Source: Brachyhypopomus gauderio (lineage: Eukaryota > Chordata > Actinopteri > Gymnotiformes > Hypopomidae). From it: a DNA stretch of 64,000 nucleotides. The notes below the pieces were generated by a model. It made no database searches, had not been told where the DNA came from, and worked only from the letters and a program-made list of their open reading frames with translations. Location: positions 20,071,822 to 20,135,821 of the forward strand of contig NC_135223.1 of the NCBI RefSeq assembly GCF_052324685.1, written 5' to 3'. Positions 18,501-24,500 of this stretch are shown in pieces (the stretch's first letter is position 1; the number at the start of each line of letters is the position of its first letter). The position numbers were made by a program, and so were the translations under genes.

Positions 18501-21500
18501 ACTCCTTGCAGCATCTTCACAGGATTGTGGCTGGGTTCTCCCACACCCCCACCCTTGTTCTTCTTGCCAGGCTTGGAGTTCTTGCTCTTCGCCTTGTCTC
18601 CATCGCCGGGAGCCGAGGGAGGGAGGGAGCGGTAGACGTCCAGCGCGGAGCGGCCGACCAGGTCCAGCTCATGCAGGCTGTGGATCAGCTGCCGCTCCTG
18701 CTGGGCCCCCGGGGCGAGGCGCGGACTGGCCGGCGCCGCTCCGTGCACCAGCATGTCGCACGAGTCGGTGTAGACGAAGCGCAGAGCCTGCTCCAGCATC
18801 TCAGGACAGACCTTCTCCAGGGTCAGGAGGTCACAGCCCACGGCGTCCGTGCCCCGCCTCACCTCTCCGCCCCACTCGTCGCCCTGGCCGGACTCTGGGA
18901 GCAGGAGCTTGCGGAAGTATTCAGAGCGGGTGGAGAGGACGTACTTGTGGGCGGGGAAGACGCGGTGGCCGGCCTGAAGGGTCACGTCGTGGATGCTGTC
19001 CGTTTCGTCTGCTTCGGCCAGAAGCTGCTGGAAGTTTTGGGTGAATGAGGAGGTGGAGACTGTGGGAACTTCATACAGGCTGTGCAGAGAGAAGGGAAAG
19101 TCAGAGAACTTTCTTCAACTACAGGGAGGAGCACAAATATTTACTGAGACGTGTATGTGATGCAGAAATATGGAGTCAATCAAATTATGCGGTTAATCAA
19201 AATCCCACTGGGTTTATGTTTATACCAGCAGACACTGGTCCTGTTCCTAGAGGTCTACAATCATGCAGCGTGTGTCCAATTCTCTAATAATACCTGACCG
19301 GGCTAATCATTGCCTTCTTTAAACCCTATTTAGCTAATGAGTTGTTGAGATACTAGCAAGAACTCAACTCTGCATGAAGATCTCCAAGAAAGAGGTTGGT
19401 GTCCACTGCTCTACATAATGACAGACCGCATGTTCCCGATAGATACAGTGTGTAGTTGCAACAACCTTGTTTTGGGGTCAGACTGCCGCACCCCAAAGTT
19501 GCGTCCCTTAGAGTCCATGGTGATGCTAACAGCTCGGTGGACGTAGGGCAGCTTCTCCAGACGAATGCGCTCATAGACCCCTCCACCTTCACAGTGAGCA
19601 CTCACCTCCGCACACACGCCTGCAAAACATCCACTTTAGGGTCAGGTGCATTTCAGACAACCAGCAATGGGGACAAGTCACGAAAGAGGACGGTGGTGCG
19701 TTTCACCTTTCTTGTCAACATTCTTCTTGTATTCGCCAAGCCACTGGCCACTAAAGCCCTCGCCATCCTGCGTGACGAACATCATTTTGTTCTTGCCAAG
19801 AGCCATGTCAGCCATAAAGACCTGTCGCCCATAGGCCCACCTGCACTGCCTGACTGAGACGGACCCGGAGCGCCAACAGAACACCTGAAAGACACGAACG
19901 AGCAGAACACCTAGTGAGACAGACCGCGTGAGAAAGAGAGAGAGAGTGTGTATGCGAGACAAAGAGAGATCCAGAGAAAGGACAGAAGGACTTGAGGCTG
20001 TCCCGATCCTTTAAGTACATCCAAGACAGAGCACATCTGCATTTGTGCTTTCTAGTGCTCACATGTTTTATAACACTCACCCTCCCAGCTTCATCCAGGG
20101 CCAAGATGGAGATCTTCTCACCGCCACTTTCATTAAGGAGCTGGGGATTCACCCGATGGTCCAAACTTCCTCCACTCACCACCACTTTCTTGATATTCAG
20201 CTGCCTGCAGGACAGACCTCAACAACTTAGCATCTAAAATGTACTGCAACCCTCTTCTAAAATGTTATAAAAGCATCAAACATCCTAATAAAATTCGTTC
20301 TTCTCCATCAAATTCACTAGTAGGTGAGCATTCCGGGACACCAGCACGACCATGGGGACGATATGATGCCAATGTCTGACCATAACAGGTTAAACTGATT
20401 GCATCATTTCTTATGTCCACCCTCCTTAAATATTGCTGATGCATTTCCTGAGGAACACATCTCTCACATGGTCCTCTCTAATTGGACAGTGTCTCCTGGG
20501 ACTACACTCACCTGGACACGCACTCTTCTGGGACTACACTCACCTGGACACGCACTCTCCTGGGACTACACTCACCTGGACACACGCTCTTCTGGGACTA
20601 CACTCACCTGGATACGCACTCTCCTGGGACTACACTCACCTGGACAAGCACTCTTCTGGGACTACACTCACCTGGATACGCGCTCTTCTGGGACTACGCT
20701 CACCTGGACACGCCCTCTTCTGGGACTACACTCACCTGGACACGCCCTCTTCTGGGACTACACTCACCTGGACACGCACTCTTCTGGGACTACACTCACC
20801 TGGACACGCACTCTCCTGGGACTACACTCACCTGGACACGCACTCTTCTGGGACTACACTCACCTGGACACGCACTCTTCTGGGACTACACTCACCTGGA
20901 CAAGCACTCTTCTGGGACTACACTCACCTGGACAAGCACTCTTCTGGGACTACACTCACCTGGACACGCACTCTTCTGGGACTACACTCACCTGGACACG
21001 CACTCTCCTGGGACTACACTCACCTGGATACGCACTCTTCTGGGACTACACTCACCTGGACACGCACTCTCCTGGGACTACACTCACCTGCACACGCACT
21101 CTTCTGGGACTACACTCACCTGGACAAGCACTCTTCTGGGACTACACTCACCTGGACACGCACTCTCCTGGGACTACACTCACCTGGACACGCACTCTTC
21201 TGGGACTACACTCACCTGGATACGCACTCTCCTGGGACTACACTCACCTGGACACGCACTCTCCTGGGACTACACTCACCTGGACACACACTCTCCTGGG
21301 ACTACACTCACCTGGACACGCACTCTTCTGGGACTACACTCACCTGGATACGCACTCTCCTGGGACTACACTCACCTGGACACGCACTCTCCTGGGACTA
21401 CACTCACCTGGACACGCACTCTCCTGGGACTACACTCACCTGGACACGCACTCTCCTGGGACTACACTCACCTGGACACGCACTCTTCTGGGACTACACT

Positions 21501-24500
21501 CACCTGGACACGCACTCTTCTGGGACTACACTCACCTGGACACGCATTCTCCTGGGACTACACTCACCTGGACACGCACTCTTCTGGGACTACACTCACC
21601 TGGACACGCACTCTCCTGGGACTACACTCACCTGGATACGCGCTCTTCTGGGACTACACTCACCTGGACACGCGCTCTTCTGGGACTACACTCACCTGGA
21701 TACGCGCTCTTCTGGGACTACACTCACCTGGACACGCACTCTCCTGGGACTACACTCACCTGGATACGCGCTCTTCTGGGACTACACTCACCTGGACGCC
21801 AGCTTCTTGCACTGGTAATCCGCGAGCAGGTAGATGTCTCCTTTCTCTGTCAAACACACCGTGGCCCCGTTACTGGCTGCTGCCATAGCGATGGTCACGT
21901 CCTTGTAGTGTAGAGCAGACACTTGGCGAGGCATGAGCACACACTTCTCACCATTGGGGTCCAACAGGTAGCCTAGACAGACAAAACAGTTCAAAATATA
22001 TAATAAAAGTCATTAACAGGCACTGAACATGGATTTCAGTAGGAATAAAATAGAAATATATATATTTTTTATATATTCCACAGATTTACAACTTTTGTAA
22101 AATAAAAGAATGTCAGCTAATAAAGGCCTTGCTTTTATGACCTACAGATATACACAGAAATCACTTAGTTTACATACGGACACCACTGTTAGTTTACATA
22201 CGGACATCGCTCTTAATTTACATACGGACATCGCTCCTAGTTTACATACGGACATCGCTCCTAGTTTACATACGGACATCGCTCCTAGTTTACATACGGA
22301 CATCGCTCCTAGTTTACATACGGACATCGCTCCTAGTTTACATACGGACATCGCTCCTAGTTTACATACGGACATCGCTCCTAGTTTACATACGGACATC
22401 GCTCTTAGTTTACATACGGACATCGCTCTTAGTTTACATACGGACATCGCTCTTAGTTTACATACCGACATCGCTCTTAGTTTACATACAGACATCACTC
22501 TTAGTTTACATACAGACATCACTCTTAGTTTCTTACCCAGCTGCCCCCCATTCAGCCCTACAGTGTAGACTGCGTCTCTGGTCCACAGAACAGTGTGAAA
22601 CCTTCCAGCAGCAACACCAATCACACTCCTGCCTTTTAGAGACCTAGAGGTCACCTGCACTCAACAGTGAACACCAAACTCAGTGAATCATCACTTAATC
22701 CAAACACCTTCTACAGTCTGTTCACTTTCAGCTTTTCTCACCTGTTTGGGCACCTGGCTGGCGGCTGGCGGAGGTGCCAGGCCCAGCTGGTGGTACGTGT
22801 TGAGGCCAAACGTGTATACGTAACCTTCCTCAGTCAGAACCACTGTGTGGTCCCGGGCTGCAGCGATCTGGGAACAGTGATGAGACAGGAGCCCCTCTAC
22901 CATGCGAGGAACCTGAACAACCCAGAGACACACTTCAATCACAGTGGGAAGAAGGTCTGGCAGGCATCACGTCTGACGCTGCGAGAAAGGGGGTCCCACC
23001 AAGTATGTCTGCTCATCTCCATGCCCAAGGCGTCCTCCCTGGCCATGGCCACAGGTGTAAACCTGGCCTTTCTGAGACAGGAAGACAGAATGGAACTTGC
23101 ACAAGACAACCTGAGAACACACACACACACACACACACACACACACACACACACACACACACACACACACACACACACACACACACACACACACACACAC
23201 ACACACACACACACACACACAATGGATGCATTAGAATTCAACAAAACTGTTTAGATAAAAACACCTTAACACCTGAATAAATGCCCCTGATGAGATCTTC
23301 AAGGTTAGGTTCAGGAAACAGCCAGGAGTTTCTCTCTCTGTCTCATTATTCTCTGTCTTTTAGACCAGTCCAGGACATAAATTTCTCCAAGAGTTTATTG
23401 GCAACATAACACACACTTTGTAGAGCAGGTGTGTACTATTCATTATGCATGATTGCTGGGTATTTGCATGCCTTTGTGGGGTATGGATCATCCCGCTACA
23501 TGTGCAACACCTTACTCCTGCTGTGGTTCTGGACACAGTTCCACCTGAGCCTTGCCATGGTTTAAACAGCAGAGATCCACCAAAACCAACATCATAACTA
23601 ATGCAAGACGCTCTCTTAATAGGAAAGAGATGTTCTGTAAAGCATCCCACGCATAAGCCATAGTGAGTATTGCGCACAAACGCTTTCTCCCTCCGTCACA
23701 TGCTGGGCTTATTGGATTAAAGCATGTTATTGATTAATTAATATTTAACTCTAAGCATCTGTAGAACAGTGGGGTTGGCACACTGGCTTCTCTTTCCATG
23801 GACGGGGCACCTGAAAGCTGATGAATGGTTGGGGAACACGATCCCCGACACACTGAACATTACGAAATTAACATGCACGGGACTTCTGAAATTAATACAC
23901 CTACAACTATATGAACTGAAGTGTATCAAAGGACTACTGAGAGGCACTGCGCTGGCTCAGGACATGAATAGCAATGGGAAAAATGTGACCTCCCCAGCAG
24001 GGGTGGAACATTATTTCAGTGCTGTATGTTTCAGTACATACAGTGCAATCTGTCTCGACTTTTTCAGCATATGGGACTTGAGCAGTGCTGACGACAAGGT
24101 TAATGTGAAGCATGTCGAGCTTTAATTTGAGGATAATTGCATCTATACTAGATGGAGGATAAAGGATCAATAGAATAAAGTATATATAGTGCACCCCGTT
24201 TATCGACCACACTTTCTGCAAACCTTTCTGCAAACAGACTGAAAATTTCATGAACAATTTCAGTAACATAAGTAAATAATTAGACAAAATCAAACCCTTC
24301 AAAAAACAAAATCAGCACTTCCTAACCAAAAGTTAGTTAAAACAAAAGTTTTAAAATTCCACATATTACAGCTGGTTTTCTGTTACACAAGGGTTTATGT
24401 GAGATTAACATCAATGATTTGATTAATCAGAATATAGGCTTTGGCATTTTCCAGTTCAGCTTCAGAATTACAGTATAATATGTGGAAAAGCATCAGAATC

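What the first reader, a model, noticed from the sequence alone, without database searches (positions are those of the whole stretch)
20492..21972. A minisatellite made of 41 tandem 5' splice sites in ibtk intron 8
The true exon 8 donor (CCAG|GTGAGTG at 21792/21791) is the last member of a 32-bp array. Each unit carries the same donor context, and the farthest copy is exactly 1280 bp (40 x 32) away. Nearly all copies read CAG|GTGAGT; one (about 20703) reads GTGAGC. The last ~18 exon bases (AGAAGCTGGCG..TCCAG) resemble the rest of the unit (AGAAGAGTGCGTGTCCAG), so the array probably arose by duplication of the exon-intron junction. Using any distal donor would append AGG TGA in the exon 8 frame, an immediate stop. 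The array could therefore act as a U1 snRNP binding platform or decoy, as a brake on premature polyadenylation, or as a copy-number-dependent nonsense-decay switch. The structure is seen; the roles are inference.
Basis: partly seen in the sequence, partly recalled or inferred. Interest (0 to 1): 0.88.

Follow-up and report, generated by a model that had tools for sequence, protein, structure and literature searches.

The report
Forty-one tandem copies of splice donor
In an electric knifefish, the point where a gene's exon meets its intron has been copied 41 times in a row, giving the splicing machinery 41 near-identical start signals; the same genome holds other such arrays in muscle and transport genes, which makes it a natural test of how cells pick the right one.

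Summary
On the minus strand, the true 5' splice site of an ibtk exon (21791) is the first of 41 donors spaced exactly 32 nt apart; 40 read CAG|GTGAGTGT and one (20703) CAG|GTGAGCGT. The species is the knifefish Brachyhypopomus gauderio. Using a distal donor gives AGG TGA, a stop. First, the preceding ibtk intron also opens with a minisatellite (24 bp, 15 copies) at its true donor, though its copies are weak donors. Second, ibtk is not alone: of 46 other tandem-donor arrays looked at in this genome, 5 begin exactly at the donor of a recognisable exon (BicD, LDL-receptor class A, dystrophin-like, troponin T, troponin I), and their units contain near-copies of the exon's last 12-25 nt. Best reading: a class of splice-junction-duplication minisatellites, probably tolerated because exon definition picks the exon-proximal donor. 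I saw no sign of selection on the donor copies and had no RNA data, so the proposed U1-platform, polyadenylation-brake and NMD-switch roles are unsupported. The known precedent is human IFI6 (6-16). A new variant of a known kind.

The parts
   Evidence: translation identical to RefSeq B. gauderio IBTK
21786..21794 (-). true 5' splice site CAG|GTGAGT, first member of the array; strongest of the 17 ibtk donors scored
   Evidence: recalled matrix 8.3; U1 duplex -14.1 kcal/mol
20492..21791 (-). 32-bp array, 41 donors, 40 full units plus a 20-nt partial unit; about 82% of the intron
20698..20706 (-). the only variant donor, CAG|GTGAGC (first intron base 20703)
21792..21813 (-). exon tail that resembles the unit (14 or 15 of 21 aligned columns outside the last three bases)
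   Evidence: modest significance
20205..21791 (-). intron of 1587 nt; last donor lies 307 nt from the 3' splice site
20081..20204 (-). next ibtk exon (QLNIKKVVVSGG...)
22164..22536 (-). second donor-anchored minisatellite in the preceding intron: true donor TGG|GTAAGAAACT at 22536, then 15 copies of about GTATGTAAACTAAGAGCGATGTCC from 22513 (the last ones degenerate)
   Evidence: copies are weak donors (recalled matrix -2.9 to 1.9)
22537..22654 (-). preceding ibtk coding exon

Best explanation
The array is a splice-junction-duplication minisatellite. A tandem duplication spanning the last bases of the exon and the first bases of the intron was expanded and homogenised to 41 donors (origin: inferred from homology). 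It is one of a class in this knifefish genome, where five other tandem-donor arrays also start exactly at true exon donors (shown by protein-family matches for BicD, LDLa, troponin T, troponin I and a dystrophin-like gene). It is tolerated because exon definition pairs the upstream 3' splice site with the nearest donor across the exon: both flanking introns exceed 250 nt (564 and 1587 nt; 307 nt even from the last donor) and the proper exon is 181 nt, so the exon-proximal donor wins although 40 of 41 donors are identical (inferred from published minigenes). The remaining copies are removed as intron. A small leak to the next one or two copies, as reported for IFI6, would end at AGG TGA and be degraded (inferred). 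I propose no selected function for the array itself.
For: Structure. Gene and junction. Class: the 100 places listed fall into 20 distinct arrays in the first 23 Mb of C1, and 4 of 20 start at a true donor: L051 BicD exon (Pfam 1.5e-21 over all 51 residues), L022 LDLa exon (1.1e-12), L019 troponin T (recalled probe, this exon E 7e-8 and three following exons 2e-10 to 1e-17; two following exons match Pfam Troponin, 1.6e-4 and 1.5e-7), L021 troponin I (the array-bearing exon itself only by recalled resemblance; two following exons match Pfam Troponin, 6e-8 and 2.4e-22). A fifth, L106, is dystrophin-like (Spectrin 8.3e-5, below that family's cut-off; dystrophin chain 9c3c 6.5e-4). Exon-tail copies in the units: TnT 12/12, TnI 8/9, LDLa 13/14, BicD 20/22, dystrophin-like 8/9 aligned columns outside the -3 to -1 bases, 0 of 2000 shuffles each. 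The unit is found only at ibtk in this genome. Mechanism: with two identical CAG/guaagu donors in exon-definition minigenes (flanking introns 365 nt) the upstream one was used exclusively (PMC9225289, Results).
Against: I have no RNA data. Exon-tail similarity at ibtk is modest (43 of 2000 shuffles against unit 1; 59 of 1059 GT controls). Predicted accessibility does not favour the true donor. The published minigenes had two donors, not 41, and in human events not matched for strength about 60% prefer the downstream donor. Donor-octamer arrays are not more numerous than reversed-octamer arrays by raw matches (5923 against 6879; 22 against 47 for AAGGTAAGT; only CAGGTAAGT is in excess, 113 against 58). 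None of the 19 CAGGTAAGT arrays looked at gave a clear exon.
Confidence: 0.72

Rival explanations
1. Leaky donor ladder: a measurable fraction of transcripts use copies +32, +64 and so on, which read AGG TGA and are degraded, so array length sets ibtk output (NMD rheostat).
For: The four distal choices tested (k = 1, 2, 3, 40) give the same stop; 40 of 41 donors are identical; in human IFI6 two downstream repeat units are reported as used donors (PMC4526556 passage).
Against: No significant constraint on donor columns; minigenes with identical donors used the upstream one exclusively.
Confidence: 0.16
2. U1 snRNP platform or decoy: the array binds many U1 particles and suppresses premature polyadenylation or buffers U1.
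For: 41 sites with strong predicted U1 pairing (-14.1 kcal/mol for 40 of 41); [quoted passage not shown]
Against: The intron is only 1.6 kb, so there is little to protect (inference); no significant constraint on the U1-pairing columns (1 of 11 against 7 of 21 variable, p = 0.21). Whether relatives have the array could not be examined.
Confidence: 0.05
3. Chance neighbourhood: a minisatellite unrelated to the junction that happens to touch it and whose unit resembles a donor.
For: The genome holds very many minisatellites; exon-tail similarity at ibtk is modest.
Against: The register is exact, 40 of 41 copies carry the same CAG|GTGAGTGT as the real donor, and five other arrays show clear junction copies.
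Confidence: 0.05
4. Assembly artefact in copy number (collapsed or expanded array).
For: Tandem arrays are error-prone; no reads could be examined.
Against: Thirteen distinct types among the 40 full units, in irregular order, and no phase break in 40 spacings. The homology and junction register would survive an error in copy number.
Confidence: 0.02

Closest known systems
[quoted passage not shown] title seen in reference lists; paper not held)
   Same: A minisatellite made of donor-consensus units begins at a gene's real 5' splice site (title and one passage of PMC4526556; details recalled).
   Different: IFI6 units are 12 bp (recalled) and downstream units are reported as used, giving three mRNAs. 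Here units are 32 bp, not a multiple of 3, and the distal donors tested hit a stop. The knifefish LDLa array (45 bp, 12 open units) is closer to the IFI6 layout.
Exon-centric proximity rule for competing 5' splice sites (Carranza, Shenasa and Hertel 2022, PMC9225289; abstract, part 1 of Results and passages read)
   Same: Identical donors compete for one exon flanked by introns longer than 250 nt; predicts the upstream donor.
   Different: Tested in cells with two donors; the knifefish arrays hold 4 to 41, and in the dystrophin-like case some downstream copies are closer to consensus than the true donor.
Intron gain by tandem genomic duplication of AGGT-containing sequence (e.g. PMC4974935, abstract start in search listings only)
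   Same: Tandem duplication that carries splice-site sequence, here ...TCCAG|GTGAGT.
   Different: Here the duplicates lie inside an intron and extend it; I have no sign of a new intron, though intron positions in relatives were not examined.
Intronic minisatellites of fish genes (Sparus aurata GH and MSTN-2; PMC3045353 passages)
   Same: Tandem repeats of variable number in fish introns.
   Different: The passages I read do not describe repeat units that carry the gene's own donor.

Membership tests
IFI6-type minisatellite providing multiple splice donors | Tandem units each carry a 5' splice site consensus | tested here: met
   41 of 41 donors GTGAG[T/C], 40 identical over CAG|GTGAGTGT
IFI6-type minisatellite providing multiple splice donors | First unit is the gene's real donor | tested here: met
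   Exon model and RefSeq protein agree across the junction
IFI6-type minisatellite providing multiple splice donors | More than one unit is used as donor in RNA | not testable with these tools
   No RNA reads available
IFI6-type minisatellite providing multiple splice donors | Extra units keep the reading frame (recalled for IFI6) | tested here: not met
   32 mod 3 = 2, stop at AGG TGA; met instead by the LDLa array of the same genome
Splice-junction-duplication minisatellite (class defined here) | Unit holds a copy of the exon tail as well as the intron start | tested here: inconclusive
   ibtk 43 of 2000 shuffles, 17 of 3000 with the consensus but 59 of 1059 GT controls; clear (0 of 2000) in five other loci
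Splice-junction-duplication minisatellite (class defined here) | Array starts exactly at an authentic exon donor | tested here: met
   ibtk and five other loci
Exon-definition choice of the proximal donor | Both flanking introns longer than 250 nt | tested here: met
   564 and 1587 nt; 307 nt from the last donor; threshold from PMC9225289
U1 telescripting element | U1 occupancy and suppression of intronic polyadenylation | not testable with these tools
   Needs CLIP and 3'-end data
Tandem-duplication intron gain | A new intron absent from relatives | not testable with these tools
   No genomic DNA of relatives could be searched

The most novel reading that the evidence does not exclude
Splice-junction minisatellites are a widespread class in this knifefish genome, and perhaps in other repeat-rich fish. 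Dozens to hundreds of conserved genes would carry from 4 to more than 40 competing copies of their own 5' splice site, some stronger than the true one. They would persist because exon definition reads only the exon-proximal copy, while rare use of later copies yields copy-number-dependent products: in-frame 15-residue ladders in the LDLa gene, frame-shifted or nonsense ladders in ibtk, troponin T and the dystrophin-like gene.
Probability: 0.4. Interest if true: 0.8.

Novelty: new variant of a known kind. Interest (0 to 1): 0.6.

Why it matters
How the spliceosome chooses among equal 5' splice sites has been studied with small minigenes such as the two-site constructs of PMC9225289. Here evolution has built arrays of 4 to 41 equal, or even stronger, competing donors in conserved genes, with different unit lengths, frames and flanking introns. 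One RNA experiment in one species could measure the choice rule across several natural arrays, and would show whether repeat-length variation at splice junctions changes gene output.

Tried and rejected
Structural discrimination of the true donor: not seen, its predicted accessibility ranks 39 of 41 and 25 of 41. Selection on donor copies: not seen. Unit dispersed in the genome: not seen, the 11 matches listed all lie in the ibtk array (the tool notes that common words are skipped); the same test for the 24-bp array did not complete. Truncated ibtk proteins as a sign of distal donor use: none of the 120 listed of 267 hits is named as this species or another knifefish, but many are unnamed, so uninformative. 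Enrichment of donor arrays by raw count: not seen for AGGTRAGT or AAGGTAAGT, about twofold for CAGGTAAGT. By distinct arrays, grouped by eye, 20 donor arrays against 14 reversed-octamer arrays in the same 23 Mb of C1, one array in both sets; I ran no test and the difference is small. Control flanks: I fetched both flanks of 14 reversed-octamer arrays (the 15 without the shared one); 26 of 28 edges were readable. Of 78 open frames of 20 or more residues at those edges I sent 10 to Pfam and dropped the other 68, low-complexity and others; one is exon-adjacent (Laminin G, E about 1e-3, below that family's cut-off; array about 8 nt inside the intron, units without sense donors). Of 43 open frames at the 20 donor-array edges on C1 I sent 11 (three as the exon part only) plus two peptides from other frames; apart from BicD and LDLa none matched. 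For 4 of these 20 (L043, L046, L048, L053) one search printed no flank and I saw the open frames only, plus the array start of L046. In 13 loci the first perfect donor lies more than 40 nt inside the array; their array starts were printed, and only L106 shows an exon. The upstream edge of L059 was never reached; those of L063 and L071 were read. Junction arrays with non-consensus first donors or unrecognised exons would be missed, so 5 of 46 is a lower bound. Undecided: L039, L049, L050, L054, L056, L065, L070. Papers: searches listed no report of such a class beyond references to IFI6; the library lacks most subscription papers and the IFI6 paper itself.
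Full report
What is there. On the minus strand of the window the ibtk coding exon 21972-21792 ends ...GCGTCCAG and is followed directly by GTGAGTGTAGTCCCAGAAGAGYGCGTRTCCAG, repeated. A script finds 41 donors at exactly 32-nt spacing from 21791 to 20511, 40 full units of 13 types and one partial unit (TRF). 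Forty donors read CAG|GTGAGTGT and one reads CAG|GTGAGCGT. The array fills 1300 of 1587 intron bases. The exon model comes from a human IBTK sequence recalled from memory and used as a probe. It was then confirmed: the translation of the first nine coding exons (476 residues) is identical to the start of a RefSeq protein named inhibitor of Bruton tyrosine kinase of Brachyhypopomus gauderio, whose contig length equals that of the window's contig. The organism is therefore this gymnotiform knifefish (taxonomy).

The donor and its copies. By a recalled position matrix and by duplex energy with the U1 5' end, this donor is the strongest of the 17 ibtk donors scored, and 0 of 1288 other sense GT sites in the gene reach its matrix score. 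Splicing from copy 1, 2, 3 or 40 yields ...KLASR followed by a stop. Relatives differ at the last codon of this exon: the 12 next-best hits (P0002-P0013, including electric eel, characins and catfishes) read ASK where B. gauderio reads ASR, while P0014 (Silurus) also reads ASR, as do many more distant fish. If the next exon begins with G in those relatives too, their donor has A at -1 (inference). So the G at -1, present in all 41 copies, may be derived in this lineage, either before amplification or by conversion from the array.

A second donor-anchored array. The preceding ibtk intron starts GTAAGAAACTAAGAGTGATGTCT, and 15 copies of about GTATGTAAACTAAGAGCGATGTCC follow from 22513. Its copies have C or T at -1 in 14 of 15 cases and score as weak donors. 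Two neighbouring introns of one gene thus begin with minisatellites that start at the true 5' splice site. In addition a perfect GT dinucleotide run (23117-23221, 52.5 copies) ends six bases before the 3' splice site of an earlier exon.

Not alone in the genome. A 128-base piece of the array finds only the ibtk array (11 matches). The pattern AGGTRAGT three times at 16-46 nt spacing matches 5923 places, against 6879 for the same pattern read backwards, so donor-like minisatellites are not more numerous than others by raw count. I grouped the 100 listed places by eye into 20 distinct arrays in the first 23 Mb of contig C1 and looked at their upstream edges (for four of them mainly as open frames). 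In 4 of 20 the first donor of the array is the end of a recognisable exon. L051: a BicD exon (Pfam PF09730, E 1.5e-21 over all 51 residues). L022: an LDL-receptor class A exon (E 1.1e-12; best PDB chain LRP2). L019: a troponin T exon; Pfam found nothing for this 26-residue peptide, but it matches a recalled troponin T probe (E 7e-8) together with three following exons, two of which match Pfam Troponin (1.6e-4 and 1.5e-7). L021: a troponin I exon (KKMTSSRRHYLK, recalled resemblance), with following exons that match Pfam Troponin (6e-8 and 2.4e-22). Of the 19 arrays with CAGGTAAGT in the 100 listed of 113 matches (58 reversed) none gave a clear exon (one edge, L059, never reached). Of 8 arrays with AAGGTAAGT (22 matches against 47 reversed) two are junction arrays: troponin I again, and L106 on C20, a dystrophin-like spectrin-repeat exon. 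Altogether 46 distinct arrays other than ibtk were looked at and 5 start at a recognisable exon's donor; this is a lower bound. Four arrays per 23 Mb would extrapolate to about 140 in 796 Mb (Poisson 95% range about 40-350, my arithmetic). This is rough, rests on one contig, and counts only arrays the pattern can see.

Junction duplication. Excluding bases -3 to -1, the exon tail and the first unit's tail align 12/12 (troponin T), 8/9 (troponin I), 13/14 (LDLa), 20/22 (BicD) and 8/9 (dystrophin-like), with 0 of 2000 shuffled tails as good in each. At ibtk the match is 14 of 21 columns to unit 1 (43 of 2000 shuffles) and 15 of 21 to the consensus (17 of 3000 shuffles, 3 of 504 AGGT controls, but 59 of 1059 GT controls). 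So the duplication of the exon-intron junction is plain elsewhere and likely at ibtk. Consequences differ. In LDLa the 45-bp unit is open in the exon frame for all 12 full units (GESLYTHLAHNLTCS and variants), so distal donors would add 15 residues each, as in an IFI6-like ladder. The dystrophin-like 44-bp unit meets a stop in its first copy. The troponin T 38-bp unit shifts the frame and meets AGG TGA at the start of the second copy (read). In the dystrophin-like array the true donor is GTACGT while 6 of the 14 copies seen read GTAAGT, i.e. are closer to consensus.

Is it more than expected? Probably not by rate. AGGTRAGT is itself a common real donor, so if minisatellites are seeded at random, a good share of arrays with this octamer should start at real donors (inference from recalled splice-site frequencies). 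In the same 23 Mb I count 20 donor arrays and 14 reversed-octamer arrays (one array is in both), a difference close to the 4 junction arrays but small. I read the flanks of 14 control arrays, the 15 listed without the shared one. Ten of 78 open frames at their edges went to Pfam and one is exon-adjacent (Laminin G, E about 1e-3); that array begins about 8 nt inside the intron and its units lack sense donors. The message is therefore tolerance, not attraction: junction-spanning expansion is survived in conserved genes.

How it works. Published work supplies the rule. When two identical CAG/guaagu donors compete in exon-definition minigenes with 365-nt introns, the upstream one is used exclusively, and the switch to exon definition lies near 250 nt (PMC9225289; I read the abstract, part 1 of Results and passages). 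The same paper reports that, without matching for strength, about 60% of human events prefer the downstream donor. ibtk meets the exon-definition conditions: 564- and 1587-nt introns, a 181-nt exon, and 307 nt left even from the last donor. Tethering of the upstream 5' splice site to polymerase through U1 (PMC8316553, abstract only) might act in the same direction. Predicted RNA accessibility does not help the true donor, and donor columns are not significantly more conserved than the rest. I therefore expect nearly all transcripts to use 21791, with at most a small leak to the next copies that is degraded. In IFI6 two downstream units are reported as used (PMC4526556, passage). All of this splicing behaviour is inferred; no RNA was available.

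Known or new. The kind is known from human IFI6 (title in reference lists; paper not held). What is different here: a 32-bp unit with a built-in stop, 41 donors, a second donor-anchored array in the preceding intron, and membership in a multi-gene class within one genome. The searches listed no report of such a class; that is limited by the open-licence library.

Noticed in passing
22164-22536: Second minisatellite (24 bp, 15 copies) beginning at the true donor of the preceding ibtk exon; copies read GTATGT but have C or T at -1 in 14 of 15.
   Followed up: partly
23117-23221: Perfect GT dinucleotide run (52.5 copies) ending six bases before the 3' splice site of the 111-nt ibtk exon 23110-23000; skipping that exon would keep the frame. 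Resembles the UG tract before CFTR exon 9 (recalled).
   Followed up: no
L022 (C1:3150011-3153108): LDLa exon followed by a 45-bp, 13-copy junction array whose 12 full units are open in the exon frame, so distal donors would add 15 residues each.
   Followed up: partly
L106 (C20:7099900-7101250): Dystrophin-like exon whose true donor (GTACGT) is the first of at least 14 copies, 6 of which read the stronger GTAAGT.
   Followed up: partly
L019 (C1:2517196-2520279): Troponin T array: each full 38-bp unit holds an acceptor-like TTTCACTCCCATACAG, 12 nt copied from the exon (one copy with one change) and a donor, i.e. a potential 12-nt microexon.
   Followed up: no
L041 (C1:11311200-11312700): 34-bp donor array whose first donor lies 25 nt from the 3' splice site of an apparent exon on the other strand (no Pfam match); a possible acceptor-side counterpart.
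   Followed up: no
L081 (C1:4206628-4207728): Control array that starts about 8 nt inside the intron after a Laminin G-like exon donor; units lack sense donors.
   Followed up: partly
L099 (C1:23954965-23956065): Control 21-bp array that seems to lie inside coding sequence after a signal-peptide-like stretch (no Pfam match).
   Followed up: no
20399-21910: The array is open in all three frames of the plus (antisense) strand (504, 462 and 468 codons), a by-product of a 32-bp unit without stops on that strand.
   Followed up: no
21792-21794: Last exon codon is Arg in B. gauderio but Lys in the 12 closest listed proteins, which changes -1 of the donor from A to G if the codon split is conserved.
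   Followed up: partly
45129-45713: 20-bp, 29-copy minisatellite AGGTGTGGCGTGCGGAACGG outside ibtk, not examined.
   Followed up: no
837-2462: Minus-strand open frames that look like a TENT5 (FAM46) gene next to ibtk (recalled, not tested).
   Followed up: no
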